Below, one piece after another: positions 11,366 to 33,775 of a stretch of DNA of 64,000 nucleotides. A model generated the notes under the pieces. That model worked only from the letters and a program-made list of their open reading frames with translations, was not told where the DNA came from and did no database searches. The position numbers and the translations under genes are program-made. Source of the DNA: a bacterium (GTDB taxonomy: Bacteria > Verrucomicrobiota > Kiritimatiellia > CAIKKV01 > CAIYGI01); the NCBI GenBank assembly GCA_025360745.1, contig JANYBP010000079.1, positions 1 through 64,000 of the forward strand, in the 5' to 3' direction. Positions within the stretch are counted from its first letter, which is position 1. The number at the start of each line of letters is the position of its first letter.

Positions 11366-11394
11366 TTGACATGAAACATAGCATCTGTTATATT
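11366..11394 (+). promoter_or_regulatory. Promoter of the defence operon
   Basis: TTGACA at 11366-11371 and TATATT at 11389-11394, separated by exactly 17 nt: a near-consensus sigma-70-type promoter. Transcription would start near 11400, about 40 nt before the helicase ATG. Confidence 0.75.
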
Positions 11395-11406
11395 AGCTCG
11401 GTGGTT

Positions 11407-11425
11407 TTCAAGCGTAACGCTTGAA
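11407..11425. promoter_or_regulatory. Palindromic operator candidate
   Basis: TTCAAGCG-TAA-CGCTTGAA is a perfect 8-bp inverted repeat with a 3-nt centre. It lies at about +7 to +25 of the predicted transcript and directly before the helicase ribosome site. The first gene carries an N-terminal XRE-type HTH, so autorepression through this site is an obvious hypothesis. Confidence 0.6.
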
Positions 11426-11441
11426 CGGACTGGACGCTACG

Positions 11442-14400
11442 ATGACAGAACGCTATGTGATAGGGGCGAAGCCGGGCGATGATTACTCCGAGCGCATCAA
11501 GCGCCTGCGAGGAGATATCCGCCTGACCCAACAGGCGCTCGCAGGCCGCTTGGGCGTCTCGTTTGCCACCGTCAACCGGTGGGAGAACAAACAGACCAAG
11601 CCGTCTCGACTCTACTGGAACCAACTTCAGCAACTCGAAATGCGCGTGGCCGAGGAGTCCGTCCCCTACGGCAAGCCGATGGCGACGCCGCCCGCGATCC
11701 TGGACTTCACCGCCCAGCCGGAGGTCGTGAAGGTCCTGGCCGAGGGTGAACGCCTTTCCTTCGGCCACCTGATGAACCCAGCCTTTGCCACCGAGATCTC
11801 CAGCATCGATCCCCTGCCGCACCAGCGGATTGCCGTCTACGACCACATGCTCAAGCAGCCCCGGCTGCGATTCCTGTTGGCCGATGACGCGGGCGCGGGC
11901 AAAACCATCATGTCCGGCCTCTACATCCGTGAGATGTTGTCCCGCAGACTGTTGCGCCGGATTCTGATCGTCACCCCCGCCGGGCTGGTGGGCAACTGGC
12001 GGCGCGAGTTGCTGACGCTGTTCAACCTTCCGTTTCGCATAGTCACGGGCGCGGATGCGCGGGCGGACAGCCCGTTCCAGGGCGAGGAGGGCGACCGGAT
12101 CATCATCAGCGTTGATACGCTATCGAGCCCGCGCATGTTCGCGCGCCTCCGTGAAACGACCGTCGTGCCCTACGACCTCGTCATCTTCGACGAGGCGCAC
12201 AAGCTGGCAGCCGACCGGGGCAACGATCTGCGCGTCCGCAAGACTGACCGCTACTGCTTGGCCGAGGCTATCGCGGGTGTCCAGACTCAGAACGGTCATT
12301 GGCGACTGGGCTGGAGCGCCCATCATCTCCTGCTACTGACCGCCACCCCGCACATGGGCAAGGACTATCCGTACTACGCCGTGTGGCGACTTCTCGAACC
12401 CGAGATGCTAGCGACCCCGGATGCGTTCGACGAGTTTCCGCGCGAGCGCAGACAAGCGCATTTCATCCGGCGAACCAAGGAAGAAATGGTCTTCCTGGAT
12501 GGCCGACCGCTCTACCCGAAACGCATGTCCGACACGCTCGGCTACGAACTCAGCCAGGGCCCCGCCGTCGCCCAAGGGGCTATGGCGGGCGCGGACATCA
12601 GCGAGCAGAAGCTCTACGACGAGACCACGGACTACCTGCGCTTCGTCTACAACAAGGCGAAGCTGCTGAACCGTGAGGCGGCACGGCTCGCCATGAGCGT
12701 GTTCCAGCGACGTCTGGCCAGTTCAACCTACGCGCTTCTCCGGTCGTTCGAGCGCCGCATGGAGAAGCTGAACGCGCTGATCGACGATATCCAGGACGGA
12801 AAGATCACCACCGAGCAGATGATGACCTTTCAGGCTCGCCTCCACGAGGACGACCTTCTCGACACCACCAGTGCGGACGACGAAGGTGACGAGGAACACG
12901 GCGAAGCCCACGAGGCCGCCGAGGATCGCCTGCTGCAAGGCGTGGTCGCCGCATCCCTCACCGACCTGCTGGCCGAGAAGGAACAGGTCAAGGAACTGCT
13001 CGATCTGGCCCGCAAAGTCCACGACGGCGGCCACGAGTCGAAGTTCGACAAGCTCCGGGAAGTCCTGACCGACTCCCGCTTCAGCGGCGAGAAGTTCATC
13101 GTCTTCACCGAGCACCGGGACACGCTGGAGTTCCTCGTGCGGCGGCTCGGCGGAATGGGTTATACCGGCCAAATCGCCCAGATTCACGGCGGCATGCAGT
13201 ATCTCCAGCGCGAAGACGAGGTGGAGCGTTTCCGAAAGCCGATTGACGAGGGCGGCGCCCGCTTTCTCATCTGCACGGATGCCGCGGGCGAAGGCATTAA
13301 TCTCCAATTCTGCTGGATCATGATCAACTACGACGTGCCTTGGAATCCCGCCCGCTTGGAGCAGCGCATGGGCCGCATTCACCGTTACGGCCAGAAGCAC
13401 GACCCCGTCGTCATCATGAATCTGGTCGCGCCGTCCACCCGCGAGGGCAAGGTTCTGAAGGTGCTGCTCGACAAGCTGGAGAAGATTCGCAAGGAACTCC
13501 AGTCCGACAAGGTCTTCGACTGCATCGGGCGCCTGTTCGAGGGCGTCTCCATCAAGCGGTACATGGAGCTTGCGGTAACGGAAGACGCCGACGAGGTGGC
13601 GCTGCAACTGGACGGCCGCCTGACCAAGGAGCAGATCGAGGCCGTGGCCAAGCGCGAGAAGTCCCTCTACGGAACCGGCGGCGACGTGGCGAAAGAACTC
13701 CCGCGCCTCCGTGTCAGCATGGAGCAGGAAGTCTATTTCCGGTTGATGCCGGGGTACATTCGCCAGTACATCCAACAGGCCGCCCCGCTTGTGGACATTG
13801 AGATCGACGGCGACATGGACGGAGTCTTCTCGCTCCGCTCTCTCCGGTTCGGCGCGATGGACCCGCTGCTTCCGGTGCTGGAACTGTACCCCGAAAAGTC
13901 CCGCGACAACTTCTCTGTCGTCCGCCCGACAGACCGCAAGGACGTGATCTGGCTCCATCCCGGCGAGCCGGTATTCGAGCGGTTCCGCGCTCTGACAACC
14001 GAGCGCCTGGCGGAGATCGGCACACGCGGCGCGGTCTTCATCGACCCGTCCGCCACCAAGCCCTACCTCTTCCACATGGCGCTTATTTCGGTGGTGCGCC
14101 GTGCCGACCCGGAACTGCCCGACTTCGCGCAGGAAGAGGTCCTCGAATGCCGCCTTGTCGGCATCTGCCAGCAAGAAGGCTCGGAGATCTGCGTCTGCCC
14201 CGTCGAGCATCTTCTACTTCTGAAGGGAGGACACGGCCTCCCTGCTTCGGCCCAACGGCTGGCCGTGGCCGCCACCGAGCAGAAGGAACTCGCCCGCGCC
14301 TATCTGGCCGAGCGGATCGCCCGCGGGATGGCCCTCGAACGCAAGAAGACCCTTGCCGACAGCATCCCGGAACGCGAGGGATTCATCCGCCGGGGCTTCG

Positions 14401-15044
14401 ACTACCAGGAATCGGAACTGGCCACCGCCCGCGCCAAGCATTCCGACAAGGCCCGCAACGGCAACCGCAAGGCGATGGAGGCGTTGGACGAGGTCAAGCG
14501 CCAGCAGCGCGAACTTGCCGCGCGCCGCCAAAACGCCCTGGCCGTCCTGCATCGTGAAACCGACCTGATCGCGCCGGGCGAAGTCACCTTCGTGGCCCAT
14601 GCACTCGTGGTGCCGTCATCCGACCCGGCTGACATCGAGCAACACGACAAGAATATCGAGCTGGTCGCCATGCAGTTAGCGCAGGCGTTCGAGGAAGCGG
14701 CCGGGGCCAGAGTCCTGGACGTCCACACGCCAGACCTCGCCCGTCAGGCTGGCCTGCCCGAGAACCCGGGCTTCGATCTTCTGTCGATTCGACCTGACAA
14801 CGTGAAGCGATCCATCGAAGTCAAGGGCCGCGCCACGATCGGCGACATCGAGGTCTCCGCCAACGAGTGGGCCAAGGCGTGCAACATGCGCCAGGGCTAC
14901 TGGCTCTATGCCGTGTACAACTGCGCCACGCCCAACCCGCGCCTGGCCCGCGTCCAGGATCCGTTCGGGGCCCTGCTGGCAAAGGCCAAGGGGAGCGTGC
15001 TGGTCAGCCACGCGCAGGTCGCGGAAGCGGAGGTGGCCACATGA
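11442..15044 (+). CDS. HTH-SNF2-family helicase with DUF3883 domain (Hma/DISARM-like helicase)
   Basis: A 1200-residue defence helicase. Residues about 15-58 form an XRE-type HTH (TQQALAGRLGVSFATVNRWE). Superfamily 2 motifs follow: Walker A-like DDAGAGKT (about 149), Walker B VIFDEAHKL (about 249), SAHHLLLLTATP, then the second RecA domain with FTEHRDTLEFL, TDAAGEGINLQ and RMGRIHRYGQ. A long middle region leads to DUF3883 near the C-terminus (GFDLLSIRP, IEVKGRA), a PDDEXK-like fold. Such helicases are core to DISARM- and Hma-type systems. I chose ATG 11442, because the TTG at 11421 lies inside the palindrome. The stop overlaps the next start (ATGA). Confidence 0.85.
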   Translation: MTERYVIGAKPGDDYSERIKRLRGDIRLTQQALAGRLGVSFATVNRWENKQTKPSRLYWNQLQQLEMRVAEESVPYGKPMATPPAILDFTAQPEVVKVLAEGERLSFGHLMNPAFATEISSIDPLPHQRIAVYDHMLKQPRLRFLLADDAGAGKTIMSGLYIREMLSRRLLRRILIVTPAGLVGNWRRELLTLFNLPFRIVTGADARADSPFQGEEGDRIIISVDTLSSPRMFARLRETTVVPYDLVIFDEAHKLAADRGNDLRVRKTDRYCLAEAIAGVQTQNGHWRLGWSAHHLLLLTATPHMGKDYPYYAVWRLLEPEMLATPDAFDEFPRERRQAHFIRRTKEEMVFLDGRPLYPKRMSDTLGYELSQGPAVAQGAMAGADISEQKLYDETTDYLRFVYNKAKLLNREAARLAMSVFQRRLASSTYALLRSFERRMEKLNALIDDIQDGKITTEQMMTFQARLHEDDLLDTTSADDEGDEEHGEAHEAAEDRLLQGVVAASLTDLLAEKEQVKELLDLARKVHDGGHESKFDKLREVLTDSRFSGEKFIVFTEHRDTLEFLVRRLGGMGYTGQIAQIHGGMQYLQREDEVERFRKPIDEGGARFLICTDAAGEGINLQFCWIMINYDVPWNPARLEQRMGRIHRYGQKHDPVVIMNLVAPSTREGKVLKVLLDKLEKIRKELQSDKVFDCIGRLFEGVSIKRYMELAVTEDADEVALQLDGRLTKEQIEAVAKREKSLYGTGGDVAKELPRLRVSMEQEVYFRLMPGYIRQYIQQAAPLVDIEIDGDMDGVFSLRSLRFGAMDPLLPVLELYPEKSRDNFSVVRPTDRKDVIWLHPGEPVFERFRALTTERLAEIGTRGAVFIDPSATKPYLFHMALISVVRRADPELPDFAQEEVLECRLVGICQQEGSEICVCPVEHLLLLKGGHGLPASAQRLAVAATEQKELARAYLAERIARGMALERKKTLADSIPEREGFIRRGFDYQESELATARAKHSDKARNGNRKAMEALDEVKRQQRELAARRQNALAVLHRETDLIAPGEVTFVAHALVVPSSDPADIEQHDKNIELVAMQLAQAFEEAAGARVLDVHTPDLARQAGLPENPGFDLLSIRPDNVKRSIEVKGRATIGDIEVSANEWAKACNMRQGYWLYAVYNCATPNPRLARVQDPFGALLAKAKGSVLVSHAQVAEAEVAT

Positions 15045-16009
15045 ACACGTCATTCTCGATAGCGCCACGGCATGCCGTGGCGCTATCGACCGGGCGCAAA
15101 CACCTCCGCATGCAGGGCTGGGATTTCACCAGTCCCGGCTGGTATTTCCTGACCGTCTGCACCAAGAACATGCGCTCCGAATTCGGTACGGTCGTCAACG
15201 GCCGCATGACCCTCAACGAGGCCGGCCGGATCGCCGACAAGTTCTGGCGCGAAATCCCGCGTCATTTTCCACGCGCCGTCGTGGACGAACAGGTCGTGAT
15301 GCCCAACCATGTGCATGGCCTGCTGCGCCTCACGGAAACGGGCTGGGATATCGATGGCCTCACGGCACGCCGTGAGGCCTTCGGCAAACCGGTGGCCGGT
15401 TCCGTGCCCACCATCATGCGCTCCTACAAAGGCGCCGTTACCCGGGCACTGGGCCGGAACCCCTGGCATCGCCGGTTCTACGAAGTCCGGGCGCGCGACG
15501 ATCTGGCGCGCACCAACATTCGCAACTACATCCGCCGCAATCCGGGGAACTTCGACGCCGTGGTGAACGGCGGCGAGCCGCAGAGTCTTGGCAACAAGGC
15601 CGTGCTGGACTTGCCCAAGGTGGGCTTTCTGGCCTCGCGCGGGCAGGCGAACCCGCATGGAAACCTGCCGCTCAAACCGGGCGAAGCCATCATTTCGGGA
15701 TTTCTCTCGCCCATGGAACGTGCCGTTTTCCGTGCCGGCCTGGCCAGCAAACGCCCCATGATCTGGGTGCTGCCCCATGGCCTCAATACCCTCACGGCAT
15801 GCCGCTCTGCCATTGAAGAAGGCAGACTGCTTGTGCTCTCGCCCTTCGAGACCGCCATCGAAGCCCCCAGCGCTCGCCGGGCGGTGTGGTGCAACCAGTA
15901 CGTGCTGGCCCACTGCAACCGCGCGGTGGTGGGCCACCTCAACCCCGATGGCATGCTCGCCTGCATCCTCCACGAGGCCGATCCCGATATGGAGATTGTA
16001 CGCCTATGA
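15041..16009 (+). CDS. REP-associated (HUH, Y1) transposase-like domain fused to a DprA-like tail
   Basis: A 322-residue protein. Residues 25-175 match the Y1 transposase fold of RAYT/TnpA-REP proteins: SPGWYFLTVCTKN, the HUH pair His90/His92 in VMPNHVHGLL, a candidate catalytic Tyr129 (IMRSYKGAVTR), then NIRNYIRRNP. The remaining part (about 190-322) resembles a Rossmann/DprA-like domain (GEAIISGFLSPMERAVFRAG, RLLVLSPFE). Three GCATGC-centred or similar palindromes lie inside the gene, one spanning codons 6-16. It overlaps the helicase and the next gene by 4 bp each (ATGA), so it is built into the operon and is not a loose insertion. Housekeeping of the operon's palindromes or a domesticated nuclease role are both possible. 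Confidence 0.7.
   Translation: MNTSFSIAPRHAVALSTGRKHLRMQGWDFTSPGWYFLTVCTKNMRSEFGTVVNGRMTLNEAGRIADKFWREIPRHFPRAVVDEQVVMPNHVHGLLRLTETGWDIDGLTARREAFGKPVAGSVPTIMRSYKGAVTRALGRNPWHRRFYEVRARDDLARTNIRNYIRRNPGNFDAVVNGGEPQSLGNKAVLDLPKVGFLASRGQANPHGNLPLKPGEAIISGFLSPMERAVFRAGLASKRPMIWVLPHGLNTLTACRSAIEEGRLLVLSPFETAIEAPSARRAVWCNQYVLAHCNRAVVGHLNPDGMLACILHEADPDMEIVRL
15057..15088. repeat. Perfect 32-bp palindrome P1
   Basis: Left half CGATAGCGCCACGGCA, right half its exact reverse complement. It lies within codons 6-16 of the HUH-transposase-like gene and encodes the Pro-Arg-His-Ala-Val stretch. It looks like a REP-type hairpin. Confidence 0.85.
15356..15379. repeat. Palindrome P2
   Basis: GGCCTCACGGC - AC - GCCGTGAGGCC, an 11-bp perfect stem inside the HUH-transposase-like gene. 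It shares the CACGGC core with P1. Confidence 0.75.
15795..15804. repeat. Palindrome P3 (short)
   Basis: CGGCATGCCG in the context CTCACGGCATGCCGCTCT. It is a decayed copy of the same core, inside the DprA-like part of the HUH gene. Confidence 0.5.
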
Positions 16010-17235
16010 ACGCCACTTCTCCTTTGTCGCCCCTGTCCATACATCCACGGCATGCCGTGGAGGCCAAGCCCCCAAAGCCAATTGTGCCCGTCGCCACTGA
16101 TTTGGCGCTCTCCATCGAAACGCCCGACACCGGCAAACTGCATCTTTCCTACTGGGATGTGTGGTACGCCTTGCTGGCTATCGACATGTTCGCCGGCAAT
16201 CTCGACAGGTTGGCACTCGAACTGCGCGAGTTACGCGGCGTGTACCGCTCGGAAGACGCCAAACGCAAGTTGAGCCACCTGCGGGACTTGCAGCAGCGGC
16301 TGGCAAGAGCCGGCATCGGGGTGTCGGATATCCTGGCCGCCCTGCCGCCGGACCTGACGAAAGCCGAACGCCGCCGGGCATACGGCCGCATTATCAAACA
16401 CAACCAGCGCTCGCGCGAGCTTTCCGAAGCCATGCGGATTCTTCCCGCAGAACGGTTCGGCGACATCGCCCTGCGCGGTCTGTGGACGCCATTTCCAGTT
16501 TCGCCGGAGTCCTATTACGAACGTCTCCGAGCCAAGTTTAACTGGGAGCGCTTTCACGGCGAAAACGCATCCTGGGGTCTGGCCAAGAAGCTGGACGCGG
16601 CTACCGAAGCCGCTCTCAAACTCGAAGATAAGGGGATGTTCGGGGACGCCCTCGCCTCGCTACGCGCCACGCTGACAGTAGCCATTGAGTTGGTCGAAAT
16701 CGCCGACGACTCCTTCGGTTGCATCGGCCAGAGTTTCCAGGAGACCTTCGAGCGCTATCTCGTCCTTCCCCGCCAGAAGACCGGCGTCTCGATCGAGGGC
16801 TTCCTCGCGGACCTGCTTGAATTGCTCGTGTTTGAAGATTACGGCTTCACCGACGGGCATACCGACGGCTTCTTTGCGTCCCTTTCTGGCGAGGAGGGCG
16901 ACTTCTGTCTGGCCTATCTTCGCGGCAGACTCACCGTCTTGTCGGCCTGGGATTTGGACTATCAAGCCGAGGAGGCTCTGACCCTGATCGGGCAGGTAGC
17001 CGCCGAACAGAAACGGTTCGATTCGTTCGAGGCGCTGGCCGGCGAAATGGGATCGAGGAAATGGCAGCGGATCATCCGCCTGGCGGACGCGTCCGTTCGC
17101 GCCCGCAAACGCGATCTCGCGGACCGTATTTTCCAAGCCGCGCTGGCCGGCGAGGACGGCGGAGACGCGGATTTTCTGGCCAAGAAACACGCCCAACTCC
17201 TGCACGGCAAGTGGAGCCCCGACCCGCGAAAGTGA
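16006..17235 (+). CDS. Unknown protein of the defence operon (409 aa)
   Basis: I do not recognise a family. The start ATG 16006 overlaps the HUH gene stop. After a short Pro-rich leader (to about residue 30, containing the palindrome-encoded PRHAV), the protein is almost wholly helical. A conserved-looking block is KLHLSYWDVWYALLAIDMFA; then come charged helices and several degenerate helical hairpin units reminiscent of TPR or SWIM-less scaffold proteins (FGDALASLRATLTVAIELVE, RKRDLADRIFQAALAG). There are no catalytic motifs, membrane segments or signal peptide. Its place between helicase and TrlF-like ATPase and its translational coupling to the HUH gene suggest a scaffold or partner protein of the defence machinery. 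Confidence 0.6.
   Translation: MNATSPLSPLSIHPRHAVEAKPPKPIVPVATDLALSIETPDTGKLHLSYWDVWYALLAIDMFAGNLDRLALELRELRGVYRSEDAKRKLSHLRDLQQRLARAGIGVSDILAALPPDLTKAERRRAYGRIIKHNQRSRELSEAMRILPAERFGDIALRGLWTPFPVSPESYYERLRAKFNWERFHGENASWGLAKKLDAATEAALKLEDKGMFGDALASLRATLTVAIELVEIADDSFGCIGQSFQETFERYLVLPRQKTGVSIEGFLADLLELLVFEDYGFTDGHTDGFFASLSGEEGDFCLAYLRGRLTVLSAWDLDYQAEEALTLIGQVAAEQKRFDSFEALAGEMGSRKWQRIIRLADASVRARKRDLADRIFQAALAGEDGGDADFLAKKHAQLLHGKWSPDPRK
16044..16061. repeat. Palindrome P4
   Basis: TCCACGGCA-TGCCGTGGA, a perfect 18-bp palindrome at codons 14-19 of the 409-aa gene. It again encodes Pro-Arg-His-Ala-Val. Confidence 0.8.
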
Positions 17236-17243
17236 CAACACCC

Positions 17244-17404
17244 ATGAAACCCGCCCCAAAAACACTTCCCCCATCCACACCGCCACGGCATGCCGGACTG
17301 CCCGACAATCCTGACTTCGATCTGCTTGCCATCCGTTCCTCTTCCGCGCCAAGGGGAGCGTGCTTGTCAGCGCGTCCGCCGTTGCCATGGCGGAGGAGGC
17401 ATAG
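17244..17404 (+). pseudogene. Remnant of a second helicase 3' end (DUF3883 scar)
   Basis: The frame from ATG 17244 reads into HAGLPDNPDFDLLAIRS, matching QAGLPENPGFDLLSIRP of the intact helicase. After a deletion of roughly 75 codons and a frame change, AKGSVLVSASAVAMAEEA and a stop match the intact ending AKGSVLVSHAQVAEAEVAT. The ends of the DUF3883 tail are therefore kept and its middle is lost. It is a scar of a duplicated helicase terminus, located after the HUH and 409-aa genes. Confidence 0.75.
17286..17295. repeat. Palindrome P5 (short)
   Basis: CGGCATGCCG in the context CGCCACGGCATGCCGGAC, at codons 14-18 of the helicase remnant. It encodes Pro-Arg-His-Ala as in P1 and P4. Confidence 0.6.
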
Positions 17405-17455
17405 CCAATGAACATCGCTGGCAAACGCACACTCAATCGAACTGATCTGACCGGG

Positions 17456-17485
17456 TTGACATGCGTGCGGAAGGGCGCCTATGCT
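17456..17485 (+). promoter_or_regulatory. Internal promoter candidate before the TrlF-like gene
   Basis: TTGACA (17456-17461), an 18-nt spacer and TATGCT (17480-17485). Expected start near 17492. It would drive the second half of the operon separately from the helicase. Confidence 0.5.
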
Positions 17486-17529
17486 GCTCCGACTAGTAGC
17501 ACCCCCGGTAGCTTCGGCGAAAGGGCGCG

Positions 17530-17562
17530 GAGCCGTTCCGGTAGGGGCGGCTCTTGCTTTTT
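17530..17562 (+). terminator. Hairpin plus T-run in the leader (attenuator or small-RNA terminator)
   Basis: GAGCCGTTCC (17530-17539) pairs with GGGGCGGCTC (17544-17553), with two G-T wobbles and a GGTA tetraloop. TTGCTTTTT follows directly. It lies about 40 nt downstream of the predicted start site and 35 nt before the TrlF ATG. A first hairpin, TGCTGCT/AGTAGCA at 17482-17501, precedes it. Confidence 0.55.
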
Positions 17563-17597
17563 GCCCGCTGGCCAATGATGACAGGAGGGAACAAACC

Positions 17598-20222: not shown

Positions 20223-21397
20223 AACTCATAGAACTGATCAGTCGGGGCGAAGACAGCCGGACACAGTTCAAGCAGACCGTCACAAATCCGGAATCCGTAG
20301 CGGCCGACCTTGTGGCCTTTTCCAATAGCAACGGTGGCCGTATCCTCATCGGCGTCAATGACCAGGGGACCGTTATCGGTCTGTCGCCAGCCGATATTCG
20401 CAGAATCAACCAATTGATTTCCAACACGGCAACCAATTGCGTGCGGCCATCGGTTAACCCTACGACCGAGAATATCTCTGCCGGAGGGGTGCTGGTGATG
20501 GTCGTTACAGTTCAGGCGGGCATTTCAAAACCCTATGCCGACTACAATGGCGTGTTCTGGGTCAAGTCTGGAGCGGACAAGCGTAAGGTGACTTCCCGCG
20601 AGGAAGTCCAACGGATGCTCCAAACCGCTGAGCTGGTCCATGCGGACGAGGTGCCAGTGGAGGGAACCACGAACGGCGACATTGACTTGGAGCACTTTCG
20701 GACGTTCTTCCTGAAGCAGTACGGCAAGCGGCAGTTCGACGAGTCTTTCAGCGATGATCCCGACCGACCTGGGATTGCTTTGGGGCAGTTGTTGAACAAT
20801 CTCGGCCTGGCGCGTGAAGCGTGTCTCAATCTGGCCGGGCTCATGATCTTCGGGCGTCAACCCCAACGCCATCTTCCTGCCTTCGTAGTTAAGGCAGTTG
20901 CCTTTGTCGGCAACGACTCAGCAGGCGACAAGTATCGGGACAGTCAGGATATCGAGGGGTGTTTACGGGACTTGTTCAGGCAAACCATGTCATTTATTAC
21001 CCGTAACCTGCGGCGGATGCAGGGTGGCAAAGGCATCAATACTGAAGGCGACTTGGAGATTCCGTTGCCGGCTCTGGAGGAGCTTGTAGTCAACATGCTG
21101 CTTCACCGGGACTACTTCATCTCCGCGCCATGGCGAGTGTTCCTGTTCGACAATCGTATTGAGTTAATCAGTCCCGGCGCGCTCCCCAACAATCTTACTG
21201 TCGAGAACATTCGGAACGGCGTGTCTGTGATACGGAATCCATTAATTGCGTCATTCGCGACAAAGGGTGACGAACTGCCGTATCGCGGCATTGGTACGGG
21301 TGTCCGCCGTGCTCTCGCGTCTGTGCCTGCTCTCGAACTGGATTCGGCCCACGAGCGCAACCTGTTCACTGCACGGATTCCGAGGCAACCTGCATGA
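20210..21397 (+). CDS. AlbA_2 (Schlafen-type) ATP-binding protein
   Basis: A 395-residue protein with an N-terminal AlbA_2 domain (EDSRTQFKQTV, LVAFSNSNGGRILIGVNDQG). The C-terminal HATPase_c_4 region has EELVVNMLLHRDYF and YRGIGTGVRRAL. Proteins of this kind are labelled ATP-dependent regulators or Schlafen-like. They occur beside restriction-modification and other defence genes, where nucleic-acid binding or a regulatory role is assumed. It is coupled to the TrlF-like gene by overlap and to the truncated methyltransferase by ATGA. Confidence 0.75.
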   Translation: MEAIELIELISRGEDSRTQFKQTVTNPESVAADLVAFSNSNGGRILIGVNDQGTVIGLSPADIRRINQLISNTATNCVRPSVNPTTENISAGGVLVMVVTVQAGISKPYADYNGVFWVKSGADKRKVTSREEVQRMLQTAELVHADEVPVEGTTNGDIDLEHFRTFFLKQYGKRQFDESFSDDPDRPGIALGQLLNNLGLAREACLNLAGLMIFGRQPQRHLPAFVVKAVAFVGNDSAGDKYRDSQDIEGCLRDLFRQTMSFITRNLRRMQGGKGINTEGDLEIPLPALEELVVNMLLHRDYFISAPWRVFLFDNRIELISPGALPNNLTVENIRNGVSVIRNPLIASFATKGDELPYRGIGTGVRRALASVPALELDSAHERNLFTARIPRQPA

Positions 21398-21825: not shown

Positions 21826-21912
21826 AAGGGGAGCGTAGTCAGACGGCAAGTTTTTCTGGATACGGAAGATGTTCTTTGATTGTGGGTCGACGATATTAGG
21901 AGGGCGTGAATC

Positions 21913-23196: not shown

Positions 23197-23199
23197 GTA

Positions 23200-23868
23200 A
23201 TGCATTTTGAGATACTCGTTGAAGATCAGTCGGGGAAGGTGGCGCTCGATATCCTCGTACCAAAGATTGTTGGGGCCGACCACACGTTCATTGTGCACTC
23301 CTATAAGGGAATCGGCAGGATTCCCAGTAACATGCGTGACTGCAAGCACGCATCGAAGCGAATGTTGATGGACAATTTGCCAAAACTGCTGAAGGGTTAT
23401 GGCCGAACTCAGGCCGGGAGGCTTGGTTTTCCCTCATTAGTGGTTCTGATTTGTGACTTAGATGACAACTGTTTGCGAGGGTTCAGGCAAGAATTCCTTG
23501 CGATCCTTGACTCCTGTCATCCGAAACCGCGGGCTCGATTCTGCCTTGCTGTCGAAGAGGGTGAAGCCTGGTTTCTCGGGGATCTTCCTGCGGTCAAAAG
23601 GGCATATCCGAATGCCAGTGACTCCGTCCTTGGCTCATATGCGAACGACAGCATTTGCGGCACATGGGAAAGACTGGCTGATGCCATTTGTCCGGGCGGT
23701 TCATTAGCGTTGTCAGCCAACGGATGGCAAGCGGTCGGTGCGGGAAAGTCTGCTTGGTCGAAGAGAATTCCGCCACATATGGAAATAGATCGGAACCTCT
23801 CACCAAGCTTCTGCTTTTTCCGAAAGACTCTCATGGCTGAAATCGGGATTATTGAGGAGACGCCATGA
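23200..23868 (+). CDS. DUF4276 (TOPRIM-like) effector candidate, first pair
   Basis: A 222-residue protein. The start MHFEILVEDQSGKVALDILV holds the acidic first-strand residue, and VVLICDLDDN (about 84-92) the second acidic cluster. LAVEEGEAWFLGD (about 114-126) is the DUF4276 hallmark. Together these resemble a TOPRIM-like nuclease site. The ATPase upstream is its probable sensor partner. The stop overlaps the methyltransferase start (ATGA). Confidence 0.7.
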   Translation: MHFEILVEDQSGKVALDILVPKIVGADHTFIVHSYKGIGRIPSNMRDCKHASKRMLMDNLPKLLKGYGRTQAGRLGFPSLVVLICDLDDNCLRGFRQEFLAILDSCHPKPRARFCLAVEEGEAWFLGDLPAVKRAYPNASDSVLGSYANDSICGTWERLADAICPGGSLALSANGWQAVGAGKSAWSKRIPPHMEIDRNLSPSFCFFRKTLMAEIGIIEETP

Positions 23869-24244
23869 CTGATCACCCCCGCCTCATCGAACATGCCTTT
23901 CCGCTGAAGCAGGCTTCCTTGGATTCCGTCCACGAGAAGAATGTGCGGCATGGGCATATCTCGACGCTGCACATCTGGCCGGCGCGGCGGCCGTTGGCGG
24001 CGTGCCGGGCGGCGCTGATTGCGACGCTCCTGCCCGATCCCGGAACGCCGGAAGGCCGGAAGGCGCTGTGCGAGAAGATCGGCGGCAGGGTGGTCAAGAA
24101 GGTGGAACGTAAGAAGATGCCCGACGGCAGCATCGTCGAGCGCGAGAAGGAAGAGACCGAGGGCGGTATTCTCCACTGGGGCAGAGAGACGAAAAACAAG
24201 GCCGACCTGGATTGGTTCCGGGCGGAAATCAAGAAGGCGTATGG
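23865..24244 (+). repeat. 380-bp direct repeat: methyltransferase 5' end, right copy
   Basis: Functional copy of the repeat at 21394-21773; alignment is lost after GGCGTATGG in both copies. Confidence 0.9.
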
Positions 24245-27086: not shown

Positions 27087-28345
27087 TTACGCGAATCGAA
27101 GCTAACGGCTTTCGGTGCCTGAGGCATGTGCGCCAAGAGGTGGGGCCTTTCCATGTGTTGGTCGGACCGAACGCTAGCGGCAAGAGTAGTTTCATGGACG
27201 CGCTGGGCTTCCTCAGCCGTCTTATGCGGCATGGCGTTGGGAACGCGATCCTGGCCCCGGAAACCATCTACGACCTTGTGTGGGGGCGCCAAGGCCGGGG
27301 GTTCGAACTTGCCGTGGAAGCGTGTGTTCCGGAATCTGTGCGAAAACCCAACCACTTATTTCACGGCGACAGGACGGCTGACGTTCGTTACGAGGTGGCG
27401 GTGGGTGTGGACACGGCCGGCAAGGCTCGCGTGCTCAAGGAACAGTTGCTGCTACGCCCTGAACACGCCCCGCAGAACACTCCGTCGCGGGCGTCCGAGT
27501 CATGCGGCACGCTCTTCGTCGATCCCGATGGAACGGAATGGCACTCATTGGTGCATTTCGATGAGAGCGCCCTAGAGTACGTGCGCATGGACCCCGAGGA
27601 ATACGACCCGTCCAGACCGGACGAGGAGCACTACACGGTCTTTCACAGGCCATCGAAGGACCGGTCTCTGTTCGCCGGCTTATCGCCAACGGAATTCCCT
27701 ACGGCCATCTGGCTGGAGTCTCTATTGGGCGAGAGGGTGGTGCAAGTAAATATCAACCCGAAAGTATTACGCGCCCCGGCAAGACCAGGATTGGGCGACG
27801 TGTTGCTGGGAGATGGGGCGAATTTTCCCTGGCTCGTTCAGGAACTGGAGACACGTGACCCGGAACGCTACGCGGACTGGATACGGCATGTGGCGACGGC
27901 GCTGCCCGACATCGAGCGGGTTCGAGTCGTCAGCAGGCCGGAAGACCTCCATCGCTACCTCATGGTCAAGTACGCCAATGGACTTGAGGTTCCGTCGTGG
28001 TCGATCTCCGAGGGGACGCTTTGCCTGCTCGCGCTGACATTTCTGGCGTACTGGCGCTACGAGTACGGGACCGTCTACATGATCGAGGAGCCGGAGTCGC
28101 ACATTCACCCTCTCAACATCGAGCCGGTCATCCAGTCCCTGCGCAGCGTGTACGATGGGCAAGTCATGCTCGCCACGCACTCCCCATCGGTTCTGACGAT
28201 GTCGGACGAGGCGACGATTCTGGTCTTCTCGCGCGATAAGGATGCCGGTGTTTCCATCGTGCCTGGCGACCAGCATCCCCGGCTGCGGCAATGGCGACGA
28301 GAAGTAAGCCTCGGTGATCTTTTCGCCAGCGGGGTGCTTGGATGA
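27083..28345 (+). CDS. AAA_21-type ATPase, second pair
   Basis: A 420-residue ABC-type ATPase. Walker A is GPNASGKSS (Lys34), Walker B VYMIEEPESHIHP (about 332), and LATHSPSVLTM is the switch/H-loop. It is unlike the first ATPase outside these motifs. It overlaps the methyltransferase and the next small gene by 4 bp each, so it is tightly built into the operon. Similar ATPase plus small-protein pairs occur in methylation-associated defence loci (MAD3/MAD4 is a possible parallel, from memory). A role in triggering the effector is inferred. Confidence 0.78.
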   Translation: MITRIEANGFRCLRHVRQEVGPFHVLVGPNASGKSSFMDALGFLSRLMRHGVGNAILAPETIYDLVWGRQGRGFELAVEACVPESVRKPNHLFHGDRTADVRYEVAVGVDTAGKARVLKEQLLLRPEHAPQNTPSRASESCGTLFVDPDGTEWHSLVHFDESALEYVRMDPEEYDPSRPDEEHYTVFHRPSKDRSLFAGLSPTEFPTAIWLESLLGERVVQVNINPKVLRAPARPGLGDVLLGDGANFPWLVQELETRDPERYADWIRHVATALPDIERVRVVSRPEDLHRYLMVKYANGLEVPSWSISEGTLCLLALTFLAYWRYEYGTVYMIEEPESHIHPLNIEPVIQSLRSVYDGQVMLATHSPSVLTMSDEATILVFSRDKDAGVSIVPGDQHPRLRQWRREVSLGDLFASGVLG

Positions 28346-28971
28346 ACAACCAAGCGCTCGATCTCGTTGCATTGGTGCCTGGAAGGGACGAACAGGCGGC
28401 GTTGGAGGGTATTCTGTCGCGCCACCGAGCGCTGGGAATCGGACAAGTGAGTTATGCGATCGACAGGCACACCGGGCGGGATCCGGGTTGTCGTCTGCGC
28501 GCGGTCGATCACCTGAAGTCCGCCATTGGGCTCTACCGCCACGCGATTGTCTTGTTCGACCATGAAGGGTCTGGCGGAGAAACAACCCCTGCGTGCGATC
28601 TCGAACGGCAAGTCGAAGAAGCGCTGGCGCGATCAGGCTGGCAGGATCGTGCCGCCTGTATCGTCATCGAACCCGAGCTTGAGATCTGGGTCTGGAGCGA
28701 CTCTCCTCACGTCGATTTGGAATTGGGATGGGCCGGGCGCCATCCGACGCTCCGCGAGTGGCTGATTTCGGAGAACTTTCTTACGGCCAATACTGCAAAG
28801 CCGGCCGATCCCAAGGCGGCCATGGAACGCGCTATGAGACAGGCGCGGAAGCCGATCTCACCCCATGTCTTCGCGCGCTTGGCGGAGACGGTCGGTTTGA
28901 ACCGCTGCGGAGACCGCGCGTTCCTGAAACTCAAGACGGTGTTGCGGGGATGGTTCGATGCAACGAAGTAG
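28342..28971 (+). CDS. DUF4276/MAD4-like TOPRIM-type protein, second pair
   Basis: A 209-residue protein. LVALVPGRDEQAALEGILSR, AIVLFDHEGSG (about 68-78) and CIVIEPELEIWVWSD (about 109-123) follow the same acidic pattern and order as the DUF4276 protein at 23200, with little other similarity. It is therefore probably a distant version of the same effector. Its partner is the ATPase it overlaps. Catalytic competence is uncertain, because the first acidic residue is shifted relative to classical TOPRIM (E...DxD). Confidence 0.6.
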   Translation: MNNQALDLVALVPGRDEQAALEGILSRHRALGIGQVSYAIDRHTGRDPGCRLRAVDHLKSAIGLYRHAIVLFDHEGSGGETTPACDLERQVEEALARSGWQDRAACIVIEPELEIWVWSDSPHVDLELGWAGRHPTLREWLISENFLTANTAKPADPKAAMERAMRQARKPISPHVFARLAETVGLNRCGDRAFLKLKTVLRGWFDATK

Positions 28972-28987
28972 GGATGGCGGAGTGAAT

Positions 28988-30205
28988 ATGCAGATGCCAG
29001 AGCCCGTGCAGGACAACTACACCGGTTTGGTGTCGGACATCTCCACTTTGTTGGAACAAGCCCGGCGCACGGCGGTGCGGGCGGTTAACAGTATCCTGAC
29101 GGCAACGTACTGGAAGGTTGGCCGCCGCATTGTGGAGTTCGAACAGGGGGGGAAAGAAACGTCGGAGTATGGAGAAAAACTCTTGGAACGCCTTTCCGCG
29201 GATCTGACAGCACGACTTGGGAGGGGGTTCTCCCGCACGAATGTATCCCAAATGAGGGCCTTCTATGCCGGGTGGGAGATTGTTCAGACACCGTCTGAAC
29301 TATTCGAGGCTCGGGCGAAATGCCGGATGCTGTCTGGCGAATCCTCAGCGGCAATAGTCCAGACGGTGTCTGGAAAATCCGAGATGTTGCAGGCACTGTC
29401 TGCCACATCGTGTTTAGGCGTATTTCCCCTCTCCTGGTCACATTACGTTCGCCTGATGTCGGTGGAGCAACCGCACGCCCGCGCGTTTTACGAATCCGAA
29501 GCGATCCGCGGCGGCTGGTCGGTCCGGCAACTGGACCGGCAGATCGGCACGCAGTTCTTTGAGCGCACAGCGCTTTCCACCCGTCAGGCAGTCCTCCTGT
29601 CACGCGGGCGGCAGGCCAAACCCGAGGATGCCGTCACACTGGAGGAGCAGATTCGGGATCCGTACCTCTTGGAATTCCTCAATCTAAAAGACGAATACAG
29701 CGAGACCGAACTGGAAGATGCCATCATCCGGCATTTAGAGTGGTTCCTTCTGGAACTGGGGGCGGGGTTCACGTTTGTCGCCCGTCAGAAGCGCATCCGG
29801 ATTGGCGACGAGTGGTATCGCATGGACCTGCTCCTGTACCACCGCCGGCTGAAGAGCCTGGTTGTGATTGATCTGAAACTCGGCAAGTTCACCCATGCCG
29901 ACGCCGGCCAGATGAACCTCTACCTGAACTACGCCCGCGAGCACTTGGTGGAGCCTGGCGAAAACGAGCCGGTCGGTCTGATCCTGTGCAGCGCCAAGGA
30001 TAACGCGGTTGTCCACTACGCCATGGGCGGGATTAAGGCCGGAGTCTTCGCCTCACGCTACATGACCACCCTGCCGGATGAGGAGACTCTGCGGAAGGAG
30101 ATTCTGAGCACCCAGCGTGCGCTGGCCGGAAGAGGTTTGCCACAGACGAATCTCTCTGTGAACTCTGTGCCCTCTGTGGCTACGAAAGGAAATGACAATG
30201 GCTAA
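28988..30205 (+). CDS. DUF1016 (YhcG-type) PDDEXK nuclease-domain protein
   Basis: A 405-residue protein. The N-terminal DUF1016 helical domain has TYWKVGRRIVEFEQ, GFSRTNVSQMRAFY and PLSWSHYVRLMSVE. The C-terminal nuclease core has DLLLYHRRLKSLVVIDLKLG, with the D...(x)DxK pattern of PDDEXK enzymes, and GQMNLYLNYA after it. Members occur with type I restriction systems and may be accessory nucleases. I prefer ATG 28988 (GGCGGAG site) to ATG 28958, which overlaps the previous gene. Two small perfect palindromes lie inside the gene, and its last 20 or so codons derive from a CTCTGTG-type repeat. Confidence 0.8.
   Translation: MQMPEPVQDNYTGLVSDISTLLEQARRTAVRAVNSILTATYWKVGRRIVEFEQGGKETSEYGEKLLERLSADLTARLGRGFSRTNVSQMRAFYAGWEIVQTPSELFEARAKCRMLSGESSAAIVQTVSGKSEMLQALSATSCLGVFPLSWSHYVRLMSVEQPHARAFYESEAIRGGWSVRQLDRQIGTQFFERTALSTRQAVLLSRGRQAKPEDAVTLEEQIRDPYLLEFLNLKDEYSETELEDAIIRHLEWFLLELGAGFTFVARQKRIRIGDEWYRMDLLLYHRRLKSLVVIDLKLGKFTHADAGQMNLYLNYAREHLVEPGENEPVGLILCSAKDNAVVHYAMGGIKAGVFASRYMTTLPDEETLRKEILSTQRALAGRGLPQTNLSVNSVPSVATKGNDNG
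29283..29374. repeat. Two perfect 17-bp palindromes inside the DUF1016 gene
   Basis: TTCAGAC-ACC-GTCTGAA at 29283-29299 and TCCAGAC-GGT-GTCTGGA at 29358-29374. Both encode Val-Gln-Thr-(Pro/Val)-Ser. Their 3-nt loops, ACC and GGT, are complementary. Confidence 0.65.
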
Positions 30206-33200
30206 ACTACCCTGGAAGCCCTGGCATGAAGTGGTGAAACTCCGGGACGATCTTCGTTCCGGCGAGTTGCCGATGCACATGTTCGCCGCCGACCTCTATG
30301 AGGTCATGATGCAGCGTGGCAAGCGCCCAATCTACGAGAAGCCGGAGCACTTCTTCGCCCTGACCTTCCCCACCTACAACCTGCGCCACCTGGTGCGGGA
30401 CGTGGTGTTGCGGCTGGCGGGTAAGAACGACAAGGCCGTCCGCCAACTTGAGCTGACCTACGGCGGCGGCAAGACGCACACGCTGATCACGCTGCGGCAT
30501 CTTGTCAACGACCCGAAGAACCTGCCAGACCTGCCCGCCGTGGCCGAGTTCATGGAGGCAATCGGCCAGCAGCCGCCCCAGTGCCGCATCGCCGGTCTGT
30601 GCTTCGACAAGCTCGATGTCGAGAAGGGCATGGACGTCCGGTCGCCGGACGGCAAGACCCGGACGCTCAAGCAGCCGTGGAGCGTGTTGGCCTACCAGGT
30701 GGCGGGCGATGCGGGGCTGAAGGCGCTGCACGCCTCGAACAAGGCCGAGGAGCGCGAGACCGCGCCAGCAGAAAACGTCCTGATAGAGCTTCTCGAACTG
30801 CCCGGCAAGGATGGTCTCGGCACGCTTATCCTGATCGACGAGGTGCTGATGTATGCCCGCGAGAAGGTGGCGCAGGACCGGGAGTGGCGCAGCAAGCTGG
30901 TGAACTTCTTCCAGTACCTGACCCAGGCGGCCACCAAGGTGGACCGGTGCTGTCTGGTGGCGTCGCTCCTGGCAACCGACCCGCGCAAGAGCGACACGCT
31001 TGGACGGGAGATTCAAGCCGAACTGTACGACATCTTCCAGCGTCAGCGAGAAGAGGCCGTCGAACCGGTCGTGAAGGAGGACGTGGCCGAGGTGTTGCGC
31101 CGCCGGTTCTTCACGCCCGAGTCGCTCAAGGATCGCGAGGGCTTCCGCCAGCATGTCCTGGCCGCGATCAAGGGGATTGCCGCCGTGGACGAGCAGACGG
31201 CCAAACAGGGCGCGGAGGCCGAGGAGCGCTTCCTCAAGAGCTTCCCGTTCCATCCCGACCTGACGGAGGTGCTCTACTCGAAGTGGACGCAACTGACCCG
31301 TTTCCAGCGCACGCGCGGAGTGCTCAGAACCTTCGCGTTGGCGTTGCGCGAGGCGGAGAAATGGGACGCCAGCCCGTTGGTGGGTCCGGCGGTGTTCCTG
31401 ACCGCGCCCGACAAGGACGGTCTCTCCGAAGCCCTGCGCGAAATGGTGGCCGTCGCCGACACCGAGGAATGGGAAGGCAAGAAGCAGGCGTGGACCGGCA
31501 TCCTGGACAACGAGTTCAGTCAGGCCCGGCGGATTCAGTCGGAGTCGGTTGGACTTAGGAGCCGCGAAGTGGAACAGGCCGTCGTGGCGACATTTTTGCA
31601 CTCGCAGCCGGTCGGCCAGAATGCCCGTACGCGGGATCTGTCCGTGCTTCTGGGATCCGTGCGTCCCGACAAGATCGAATTGGAGAAGGGATTGGCCCGC
31701 TGGTCACAGTCGAGTTACTGGCTGGACGATCTCTATACGGCCGTCTCGGAAGGTCAGCTTCCGGGCACATGGCGGTTGGGCAACCGGCCGAACCTCACCC
31801 AAATGCACGCGGTGGCGGCGAAGAACATCCCGGACGACACCGTTCGCGCCCGTTTGCTCGACGACATCGGCAAAGCCAAGACTCTCACCGCCAATGCCTC
31901 GGCTGCGGGCGTCCGCGTTCATACGCTTCCGACCCGGCCAAAGGATATCGAAGACGATGGCGCTTTTCACTACGCCGTGCTCGGGCCGAATGCGGCATCG
32001 GAGTCCGGCAAGCCCAGCGCAGAGGCCAAGCGGTTTCTCGACGAGACCACCGGATCGGATCGGCCGCGCGTCTACCGGAACGCCGTGTTGTTGGTGACCC
32101 CTTCAAAGGATGGGATGGAACTAGCCATGGCCCGTGTGCGCGACTACCTGGCATGGGAGGTCGTGCGCGAAGACGTGAAGAAGCAACAGAAGGACGGGAA
32201 CGTGGACCCGGCCCGCGCCCAGACGATGCAGATCAATATCGACAAGGCGAAGGGGCGCATCCCGGAAGCCATCAAGCAGGCGTACTCCATCGTGGTCACC
32301 GTCTCCGAAAAGGACGACGCTCAGGCATTCAAGATCACGGTGACGGAAGAGCCGCATTTCAACACGATCAAGGCCGATAAGCGGTCGCGCGTCCAGGACA
32401 CGGCCATCACCGCCGAGGCCCTGCTCCCAGACGGTCCTTACAATCTCTGGCGGGATGGTGAGACCGCCCGGCGGGTCAAGGACCTGGCGGGGGCGTTTGC
32501 CCAGCTTCCGCATCTGCCGAAGATGCTGAAGGCCAGCGCCATCCTGGACACGCTGGTTGAAGGCTGCGAACAGGGCACGTTTGTGCTGCGGCTGACACGA
32601 CCGGACGGAACGTCCCGGTCGTGGTGGATGTCGAGACCCGACGAGAACGCGCTCAACGACCCGGCAATGGAACTTGTCCTGCCAGAAGCGGCCGTTCTCA
32701 CGGATGTCGCATCGGCCCTGCTCGCGCCCAAGAAGCTGCCGGGGCTGTGGACTGCTGACTTGCCCGCCGAAGCCTCGGCGCAGGCGGGCGAGATTGCCGT
32801 GCAGGCGGTGTTCGACTACTTCGGCGGCAAGACGGTCGTCCAGGTGGAGCGTGGCGGCTACCAGGAGCCCATGCAGATTCCGAAAGCTGAGCAGACTGTC
32901 GTGGAGATGGCTATCGCCGCCGCTGTGGCGGAGGGGTCTATCTGGTTACTCTCCGGGCCCGCCAGTATCCTTGGCGAGCCTATCCCGGCTGGTGTCTTAA
33001 GCGCCAACGGCAAACTCTGCGTGCCGCCCGCAGCTATTGCCGCCGCCGAGATTCTGCCCGAGAACCTGAAGGATGCGTGGAAAGGCGCGGTCGCTTCTGG
33101 CCTTTCTGTCGCCACCGCGTTATCCGTCAAGGCGGGCAAGACGCTGCCTTGGAAGACGGTGCGCGACGCGATCGGCGGCGCGCTTCAGGCGAGGTTCCTG

Positions 33201-33551
33201 GAACTGGATGCCGGATCGCAGGCGTGGCCGTGCGATTTCCCGTCCGCCCAGTTTGTGAAGGTCAAGGTCGCCACCGCCGGCGGCAAAGGCGGCGCTGGCG
33301 GGACCGGAGGAACCGGGGGCGGCGCAACGCCCAAGATGCTCGTCGCCGTCGCCGATCTCGAACCGTCGCAGGTTCAAGACCTGGGCGACATTGTGCCCAA
33401 GTTGCTGGATGTCAAGAACAAGTCCAACGTGCCCATCCGCTTCCAGGTCAGGATTGAGCTGGGCGACGGAAAGACGATGCCATCGGCGGAGGCCGCTCAG
33501 AAAGCCAACGCGCTTCTGAAGAGCGTCAAGGGAGGACTGCAACTGCAATGA
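30198..33551 (+). CDS. DUF499 ATPase of the defence operon
   Basis: A 1117-residue P-loop ATPase. LTYGGGKTHTLITLRHL (about 90) is the Walker A and GTLILIDEVLMYAREK (about 213) the Walker B. The central part is AAA-like; the C-terminal half carries the variable DUF499 region, then a glycine-rich linker (GGKGGAGGTGGTGGG) and a small beta domain (MLVAVADLEPSQVQD). Large DUF499 proteins accompany DUF1156 methyltransferases and helicases in predicted defence clusters and are the A of Hma. The AAAGGA site spaces well to ATG 30198; ATG 30192 is too close to it. It is the last clear gene of the operon. Confidence 0.85.
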   Translation: MAKLPWKPWHEVVKLRDDLRSGELPMHMFAADLYEVMMQRGKRPIYEKPEHFFALTFPTYNLRHLVRDVVLRLAGKNDKAVRQLELTYGGGKTHTLITLRHLVNDPKNLPDLPAVAEFMEAIGQQPPQCRIAGLCFDKLDVEKGMDVRSPDGKTRTLKQPWSVLAYQVAGDAGLKALHASNKAEERETAPAENVLIELLELPGKDGLGTLILIDEVLMYAREKVAQDREWRSKLVNFFQYLTQAATKVDRCCLVASLLATDPRKSDTLGREIQAELYDIFQRQREEAVEPVVKEDVAEVLRRRFFTPESLKDREGFRQHVLAAIKGIAAVDEQTAKQGAEAEERFLKSFPFHPDLTEVLYSKWTQLTRFQRTRGVLRTFALALREAEKWDASPLVGPAVFLTAPDKDGLSEALREMVAVADTEEWEGKKQAWTGILDNEFSQARRIQSESVGLRSREVEQAVVATFLHSQPVGQNARTRDLSVLLGSVRPDKIELEKGLARWSQSSYWLDDLYTAVSEGQLPGTWRLGNRPNLTQMHAVAAKNIPDDTVRARLLDDIGKAKTLTANASAAGVRVHTLPTRPKDIEDDGAFHYAVLGPNAASESGKPSAEAKRFLDETTGSDRPRVYRNAVLLVTPSKDGMELAMARVRDYLAWEVVREDVKKQQKDGNVDPARAQTMQINIDKAKGRIPEAIKQAYSIVVTVSEKDDAQAFKITVTEEPHFNTIKADKRSRVQDTAITAEALLPDGPYNLWRDGETARRVKDLAGAFAQLPHLPKMLKASAILDTLVEGCEQGTFVLRLTRPDGTSRSWWMSRPDENALNDPAMELVLPEAAVLTDVASALLAPKKLPGLWTADLPAEASAQAGEIAVQAVFDYFGGKTVVQVERGGYQEPMQIPKAEQTVVEMAIAAAVAEGSIWLLSGPASILGEPIPAGVLSANGKLCVPPAAIAAAEILPENLKDAWKGAVASGLSVATALSVKAGKTLPWKTVRDAIGGALQARFLELDAGSQAWPCDFPSAQFVKVKVATAGGKGGAGGTGGTGGGATPKMLVAVADLEPSQVQDLGDIVPKLLDVKNKSNVPIRFQVRIELGDGKTMPSAEAAQKANALLKSVKGGLQLQ

Positions 33552-33729
33552 GTACCGAGAAGACAGGAGAGCCGCCCAAAGGCCCCTTGTCGCTGGCGAC
33601 GCGGCGGCCGCAGGCAGGCAGCTACGGAAAAGGCGCGGCGCGGATGGCCCTCGAAGCCGCCGCGGTGACGCGGTGGCGTGGATGGCGCGGAAGCAGTTTC
33701 CTGTCAGGCTCGCCTCCATCCTCCGGCAG

Positions 33730-33775
33730 ACTGAATGCGTCCGCCCTGGCGGCGGCCGGGGGCGCATTCAGTTTG
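33730..33775 (+). terminator. Operon-end hairpin
   Basis: ACTGAATGCG (33730-33739) pairs perfectly with CGCATTCAGT (33763-33772); three further pairs close the stem, and TTTGTC follows. It is a plausible terminator for the defence operon, though the T-run is short. Confidence 0.6.

What the first reader, a model, noticed from the sequence alone, without database searches (positions are those of the whole stretch)
11366..33772. A ~22-kb composite defence operon built on helicase, DUF1156 methyltransferase and DUF499 ATPase
Seen: a single co-directional run of twelve intact genes, mostly joined by ATGA overlaps, with a near-consensus promoter at one end and a hairpin at the other. It holds all three parts (HTH-SNF2-DUF3883 helicase, DUF1156 methyltransferase, DUF499 ATPase) of what I recall as the Hma type of defence system. 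Added to these are TrlF-like, AlbA_2, two ATPase/TOPRIM-like pairs, a DUF1016 nuclease, a HUH protein and an unknown protein. Known: each of these families occurs in defence islands. Inference: the accessory genes are nested, partly exchangeable modules. I know of no description of this full combination.
Basis: partly seen in the sequence, partly recalled or inferred. Interest (0 to 1): 0.88.

Follow-up and report, generated by a model that had tools for sequence, protein, structure and literature searches.

The report
Layered Hma defence operon with scars
This is a known kind of bacterial anti-phage system (Hma) carrying about nine extra genes between its three core genes; broken leftovers of the core genes mark where extra genes were spliced in, and an undescribed small RNA sits among them.

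Summary
The twelve genes are real and co-directional. Profile searches give HmaA, HmaB and HmaC, i.e. an Hma (BREX-related Type-1) system, with embedded TrlF, Schlafen/AlbA_2, HEC-01A/B, MAD3/MAD4 and DUF1016 genes, plus a REP-type transposase and an unknown helical protein.

(1) A 13th ORF (21394-21825) is a truncated second HmaB start, about 95% identical over 381 bp to the true one. (2) A decayed HmaA 3' end lies before TrlF. (3) The 362-bp gap before TrlF holds its own promoter and a structured ~75-nt RNA ending in a terminator hairpin.

In 80 relatives from many phyla the order A-slot1-B-slot2-C is constant and cargo varies. HmaB-5' or HmaA-3' remnants recur in slot 1 (7 loci), none in slot 2. 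The best account is cargo capture by recombination anchored in core-gene ends. The RNA is a covarying family absent from Rfam, usually beside NYN-nuclease genes in other genomes and prophages; here it stands alone. No function was tested.

The parts
11366..11394 (+). promoter-like site TTGACA-17-TATATT with extended -10
   Evidence: 11 of 12 matches; 0.1 expected
11442..15044 (+). HmaA: HTH + SNF2 helicase + C-terminal NOV_C/DUF3883 (predicted nuclease)
   Evidence: PADLOC HmaA 3.7e-148; Pfam HTH_3, SNF2, Helicase_C, NOV_C
15041..16009 (+). REP-associated tyrosine (HUH) transposase-like protein with weak DprA-like C-terminal half
   Evidence: NCBIfam REP_Tyr_transpos 2.4e-9, below cut-off; profile hits TnpArep 4er8 and DprA 3uqz at E 0.01
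16006..17235 (+). unknown all-helical protein (409 aa), 76% identical copy in slot 1 of L060
   Evidence: no Pfam/PADLOC/NCBIfam hit; model mean pLDDT 57; no significant PDB fold match
17281..17414 (+). decayed remnant of an HmaA 3' end (scar)
   Evidence: tblastx/blastn to HmaA 3' ends of relatives, DNA alignment, HMM E 0.0038
17456..17485 (+). second promoter-like site TTGACA-18-TATGCT
   Evidence: read from sequence
17490..17566 (+). structured RNA, two hairpins, second one terminator-like; family R1
   Evidence: no Rfam match
17598..20222 (+). TrlF-family PHP + SMC-like ATPase
   Evidence: NCBIfam TrlF_fam_ATP 534 bits, cut-off 350
20210..21397 (+). Schlafen AlbA_2 + HATPase_c_4 protein
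   Evidence: Pfam PF04326 3.9e-21
21394..21825 (+). truncated HmaB 5' copy (scar); homology to HmaB ends at about 21773
21913..23196 (+). HEC-01A OLD-type ABC ATPase
   Evidence: PADLOC HEC-01A 2e-195
23200..23868 (+). HEC-01B, DUF4276/TOPRIM-like
   Evidence: PADLOC HEC-01B 3.2e-88; DUF4276 0.0013
23865..27086 (+). HmaB: DUF1156 N6-adenine-type DNA methyltransferase (motifs DPFAGGGAIP, DPPYYD)
   Evidence: PADLOC HmaB 9.2e-119; Pfam DUF1156; alignment A2
27083..28345 (+). MAD3-like OLD-type ABC ATPase
   Evidence: NCBIfam MADS3 397 bits, cut-off 420
28342..28971 (+). MAD4-like protein (DUF4276/TOPRIM-like partner)
   Evidence: NCBIfam MADS4 198 bits, cut-off 160
28958..30205 (+). DUF1016/YhcG PD-(D/E)XK nuclease (PDC-S02)
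   Evidence: Pfam YhcG_C 2.3e-55, DUF1016_N 6e-41; PADLOC PDC-S02
30198..33551 (+). HmaC: DUF499 AAA+ ATPase
   Evidence: PADLOC HmaC 1.1e-75; Pfam DUF499 3.2e-22
33715..33790 (+). stable hairpin after HmaC
   Evidence: fold z = -4.2

Best explanation
The block is an Hma (BREX-related Type-1) restriction-like chassis. HmaB would mark self DNA, the HmaC AAA+ ATPase would scan and assemble, and the HmaA helicase-nuclease would attack unmarked phage DNA. It carries backup nuclease modules in two fixed slots (A|B and B|C). These modules were added one after another by recombination with DNA from other Hma operons: one side crossed over homologously inside a conserved core-gene end (HmaB 5' or HmaA 3'), the other side joined illegitimately. 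Each event leaves a truncated core-gene end next to the new cargo and restores one full core gene. Inferred order for slot 1 here: A-TrlF-AlbA2-B first; then REP-transposase plus unknown protein after A, leaving the HmaA 3' remnant; then most recently HEC-01A/B before B, leaving the HmaB 5' remnant. Shown: families, order, slots, remnants, mosaic identity. Inferred: the recombination route, the order of events and all functions.
For: HMM identities. In 80 named loci plus further genomes the order A-B-C holds in 73 of 73 complete cases; slot 1 exceeds 300 bp in 65 of 80 and slot 2 in 47 of 80. 94% of cargo coding length runs with the operon and 124 of 250 cargo ORFs are singletons. HmaB-5' remnants recur in L047, L059 and L083, and HmaA-3' remnants or displaced tails in L060, L070 and L076. 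Mid-gene control profiles and reversed-strand controls give nothing comparable, and slot 2 has none (7/66 vs 0/48, p = 0.02). Mosaic: the two HmaB copies differ at 12 of the first 121 bp, all but one apparently synonymous, but at only 2-3 of the next 239 (p = 9e-5); L047 shows the same pattern (26 nt diverged, then 64 identical). HEC-01A/B has GC3 about 0.54 against 0.81-0.88 in HmaC, rpoB and EF-Tu. Module histories differ: H1A is 77-79% identical to L057/L085 while HmaB is 57-70%. Arrangements A-H1A-H1B-B (L057, L085) and A-TrlF-AlbA2-B (L077, L092, L094, L114) exist as expected intermediates or donors. The same-genus genome G163/L082 keeps a 39-aa TrlF tail between two AlbA_2 genes.
Against: No donor molecule or immediate pre-insertion state with high identity was found; the first 121 bp of copy 2 are only slightly nearer to L085 than copy 1 is (0.85 vs 0.80). 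The HmaA 3' remnant in the window is weak alone (E 0.004). Only 7 of about 66 occupied slot-1 loci have scars, so other routes may dominate or scars may be lost. The window is from a draft genome (131 contigs) and reads could not be inspected. Defence was not tested.
Confidence: 0.68

Rival explanations
1. The HmaB remnant arose inside one genome: tandem duplication of HmaB (or of B plus cargo), then deletion of most of the first copy, with gene conversion homogenising the middle of the repeat.
For: L080 has two full HmaB genes in tandem. Identity of the copies beyond bp 121 could come from conversion.
Against: Nearly all early differences are synonymous, as between two genes that diverged while functional; HEC-01A/B has clearly foreign base composition; scars sit where donor-like arrangements of other operons begin.
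Confidence: 0.2
2. Modules are moved by a dedicated mobile element, with the REP-type HUH protein and the palindrome CCACGGCATGCCGTGG as its machinery.
For: The perfect palindrome occurs only twice in this genome, at the starts of the HUH and unknown genes, with a damaged third copy at the edge of the HmaA remnant; HUH homologues elsewhere contain it and two genomes have 29 and 48 copies of its core.
Against: Loci L047, L059, L083, L070 and L076 have scars but no HUH gene match and no such palindrome within two mismatches; scar ends vary.
Confidence: 0.07
3. All twelve proteins form one co-evolved machine rather than a chassis with independent cargo.
For: Tight overlaps and one direction of transcription.
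Against: Relatives with complete A-B-C lack any given accessory gene, and HEC-01 and AlbA_2 occur in either slot; an internal promoter and terminator split the run.
Confidence: 0.04
4. The duplicate HmaB start is an assembly chimera of two strains.
For: Draft assembly in 131 contigs.
Against: The copies lie in series with different sequence on each outer and inner side, and the same arrangement recurs in unrelated assemblies.
Confidence: 0.05

Closest known systems
Hma system (PADLOC; Payne et al. 2021, PMC8565338)
   Same: HmaA helicase, HmaB DUF1156 methyltransferase, HmaC DUF499 ATPase in fixed order on one strand
   Different: Many embedded genes, duplicated HmaB start, embedded RNA; the 2021 paper calls HmaB m5C, but motifs and the 2026 paper point to N6-adenine
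Type-1 BREX-related (BR) systems (PMC12839542)
   Same: Same tripartite core and HmaA C-terminal nuclease; same kinds of accessory effectors (OLD-ABC/TOPRIM, Schlafen, PD-(D/E)XK)
   Different: That survey lists associations; I saw no account there of core-gene scars or of the RNA (only the passages read)
Hma-embedded candidates, HEC-01 (Payne et al. 2024 preprint, cited in PMC12988326 and PMC12255303)
   Same: HEC-01A/B pair embedded next to HmaB
   Different: Here flanked by a truncated HmaB start that records the insertion
MADS (MAD3/MAD4)
   Same: MAD3- and MAD4-like pair
   Different: The rest of MADS is absent; the pair sits in Hma slot 2, as in six other loci
Type III toxin-antitoxin systems (ToxIN and kin)
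   Same: Small structured RNA plus terminator next to an RNase-type gene in the NYN loci
   Different: Single RNA unit, not tandem repeats; NYN instead of ToxN fold; in actinobacteria the RNA is convergent; the window copy has no NYN

Membership tests
Hma / Type-1 BR | HmaA, HmaB and HmaC all present and matching their profiles | tested here: met
   3.7e-148, 9.2e-119, 1.1e-75
Hma / Type-1 BR | co-directional genes in order A-B-C | tested here: met
Hma / Type-1 BR | methylation of host DNA and phage protection | not testable with these tools
   needs experiment
HEC-01 | HEC-01A ATPase plus HEC-01B partner, adjacent, inside Hma | tested here: met
   2e-195 and 3.2e-88, position between AlbA_2 and HmaB
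MADS | complete set of mad genes | tested here: not met
   only MAD3-like (below cut-off) and MAD4 (above cut-off); HmaB hits mad2 weakly
TrlF family | NCBIfam TrlF_fam_ATP score over cut-off | tested here: met
   534 vs 350 bits
Ppl anti-phage protein | NCBIfam Ppl_antiphage over cut-off | tested here: not met
   138 vs 1000 bits
REP-associated tyrosine transposase (RAYT) | NCBIfam/Pfam score over cut-off with HUH motif | tested here: inconclusive
   37 vs 80 bits; Y1_Tnp best 1.2e-5 among homologues; MPxHVHG invariant in alignment A7
Type III toxin-antitoxin | structured RNA, terminator, then RNase gene | tested here: inconclusive
   architecture met at NYN loci but no NYN match in the window genome; convergent order in actinobacteria
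Type III toxin-antitoxin | toxicity of the protein neutralised by the RNA | not testable with these tools
   needs experiment

The most novel reading that the evidence does not exclude
The RNA at 17490-17566 belongs to an undescribed family of ~75-nt two-hairpin RNAs that work as separate transcripts with NYN-domain nucleases (an RNA-nuclease immunity or addiction module in genomes, prophages, plasmids and Hma slots). In some Hma operons, including this one, the RNA has been kept without its NYN gene and may act with the Hma core or control the genes downstream.
Probability: 0.45. Interest if true: 0.82.

Novelty: new variant of a known kind. Interest (0 to 1): 0.62.

Why it matters
How accessory genes get into the inside of Hma and BREX-like operons without breaking them is, as far as the papers read here show, unexplained. 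The repeated truncated HmaB starts and HmaA ends give a direct record of it and a testable rule: cargo enters slot 1 by recombination in core-gene ends. That makes the relative age of embedded modules readable from sequence and gives a simple search signature (core-gene fragment next to cargo) for finding further embedded defence genes. The RNA family links a nuclease type with homologues on 444 plasmid records to these operons and can be tested in laboratory E. coli.

Tried and rejected
HmaC-5' and HmaB-3' scars in slot 2: none, except the second full HmaB gene in L080. L059 HmaA-3' remnant after its HmaB scar: not significant, dropped; L064 HmaB scar: near control level, dropped. An HmaA-3' remnant between the HmaB scar and HEC-01A in the window (21774-21912): not supported. 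Structure of the HUH protein from one sequence: pLDDT 31, useless. Structure of the unknown protein: partial helical model, no significant PDB match. RNA as coding sequence: rejected, because both strands gave translated matches and pairs covary. Low-scoring R1 hits in genomes, not beside NYN, look like ordinary terminators. Metagenome scan not available.
Full report
WHAT IS THERE. PADLOC profiles name the core without ambiguity: HmaA 11442-15044 (3.7e-148), HmaB 23865-27086 (9.2e-119) and HmaC 30198-33551 (1.1e-75). The embedded genes are a REP-type HUH transposase-like protein, an unknown helical protein, TrlF (534 bits, cut-off 350), Schlafen AlbA_2, HEC-01A/HEC-01B, MAD3-like/MAD4 and a DUF1016 nuclease. 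The block lies between a sigma-54 two-component pair and tRNA-Thr/EF-Tu/tRNA-Trp. The best rpoB match among 25 named genomes is 67% over nearly the full length, to a Verrucomicrobia genome, so the host is probably a Verrucomicrobiota-like bacterium.

First, ORF 21394-21825 is a truncated second start of HmaB. 381 bp (21393-21773 vs 23864-24244) align without gaps. Twelve of the first 121 positions differ, nearly all synonymous, then about 1% of the next 239 (p = 9e-5 for this clustering). That is what a crossover between two diverged but functional HmaB genes at about bp 121 would leave. Second, 17281-17414 holds a decayed HmaA 3' end. Third, the 362-bp gap 17236-17597 has a promoter-like site (17456-17485) followed by a structured RNA with a terminator-like hairpin, so at least two transcription starts are likely.

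RELATIVES. A scan of one genome per species kept the 80 closest HmaB loci, in bacteria named as Armatimonadetes, Nitrospirae, Proteobacteria, Planctomycetes, Acidobacteria, Verrucomicrobia, Chloroflexi, Latescibacterota and others. All 73 loci with the three core genes keep A-B-C order (L082 and G163 are the same contig counted twice). Slot 1 (A|B) exceeds 300 bp in 65 of 80 and slot 2 (B|C) in 47 of 80. Cargo is diverse: 250 ORFs, 124 of them singletons, 94% of their length co-directional. TrlF occurs only in slot 1, MAD4 and DUF1016 only in slot 2, AlbA_2 and HEC-01 in both. Every accessory gene of the window is missing from many complete relatives, so the modules are exchangeable.

SCARS. 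Profiles of the HmaA 3' end, HmaB 5' end, HmaB 3' end, HmaC 5' end and two gene middles were searched in all slots on both strands and on reversed sequence. HmaB-5' fragments were found in the window, L047 (Armatimonadetes), L059 (Sumerlaeota) and L083 (Latescibacteria), all from the gene's start. HmaA-3' fragments were found in the window, L060 (Lentisphaerae; 153 of 178 bp identical), L076 and L070 (the last is a displaced tail). Middle-of-gene controls gave nothing except the second full HmaB of L080. Slot 2 gave none otherwise (7/66 vs 0/48, p = 0.02). In L060 AlbA_2 has split A from an older HUH-unknown pair, leaving an HmaA tail and an internally deleted HUH gene; the window keeps that pair intact directly after A. 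G163/L082, the same-genus genome, keeps only the last 39 codons of TrlF beside its AlbA_2.

MECHANISM. The simplest reading is one-sided homologous capture: DNA from another Hma operon recombines in the conserved end of HmaB (or HmaA) while its other end is joined illegitimately in the same gene. This leaves a truncated end and an intact, chimeric core gene. The route is inferred; the remnants, their position, the mosaic and the foreign composition of HEC-01 (GC3 about 0.54 against 0.81-0.88 for HmaC, rpoB and EF-Tu) are shown. Tandem duplication with conversion is the main rival. Function follows published work on the families, not tests here: a restriction-like core plus backup nucleases (PMC12839542).

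THE RNA. 17490-17566 matches sequences in slot 1 of L047, G083 and G227. A covariance model also finds it in slot 1 of L097 (twice) and L092, and just after an HmaA-like gene in G264. On 21 distinct sequences 98.3% of cells pair and 12 of 18 pairs show changes on both sides (shuffled mean 7.0; 1 of 500 shuffles reached it); sliding by one column drops pairing to under 50%. The alignment was fitted to the model, which leans it towards the structure. Rfam has no match. In L047 the RNA ends about 10 nt before an NYN-domain gene. The six best NYN matches in the phylum sample all have the RNA just upstream, as do several IMG/VR contigs. In an actinobacterial plasmid, a mycobacterial prophage and related IMG/VR contigs the RNA lies just after the NYN gene on the opposite strand, which argues for a separate transcript. 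NYN homologues occur on 444 plasmid records, most of which were not checked for the RNA: of three looked at, a small Serratia plasmid and a Phaeobacter plasmid gave only weak matches. The window genome has no NYN match.

NOVELTY. The system and the idea of embedding are known. The recurrent core-gene scars and the RNA family were not found in the papers searched; that library is incomplete and does not hold the 2024 preprint itself, so priority is not certain.

Noticed in passing
window 17490-17566: Undescribed structured RNA with terminator hairpin; family R1 is found beside NYN nuclease genes in genomes, prophages and a plasmid and in slot 1 of several Hma operons.
   Followed up: partly
window 15065-15080, 16045-16060, 17283-17298: Perfect palindrome CCACGGCATGCCGTGG near the start of the HUH and unknown genes (only two exact copies in the genome) and a damaged copy at the edge of the HmaA remnant; 29 and 48 copies of its 14-nt core in genomes G357 and G083, REP-like.
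   Followed up: partly
L080:10001-16635: Two full-length HmaB genes in tandem, 52-55% identical to the window's.
   Followed up: no
L231:2617-2695, L208:2450-2528, L230:2628-2698: Actinobacterial NYN genes have an R1-like RNA convergent at their 3' end on the other strand, so the RNA is probably a separate product.
   Followed up: partly
L201:5426-5503, L204:5582-5659: R1-like RNAs upstream of nuclease-like genes (one NYN-like, one beginning like DUF3800, judged by eye) in what look like restriction-system loci.
   Followed up: no
window 15041-16009: REP-type transposase with a weakly DprA-like C-terminal half; matches in 82 of 368 genomes of the phylum.
   Followed up: partly
L082:8491-8607: Last 39 codons of TrlF kept between two AlbA_2 genes in the same-genus genome.
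   Followed up: yes
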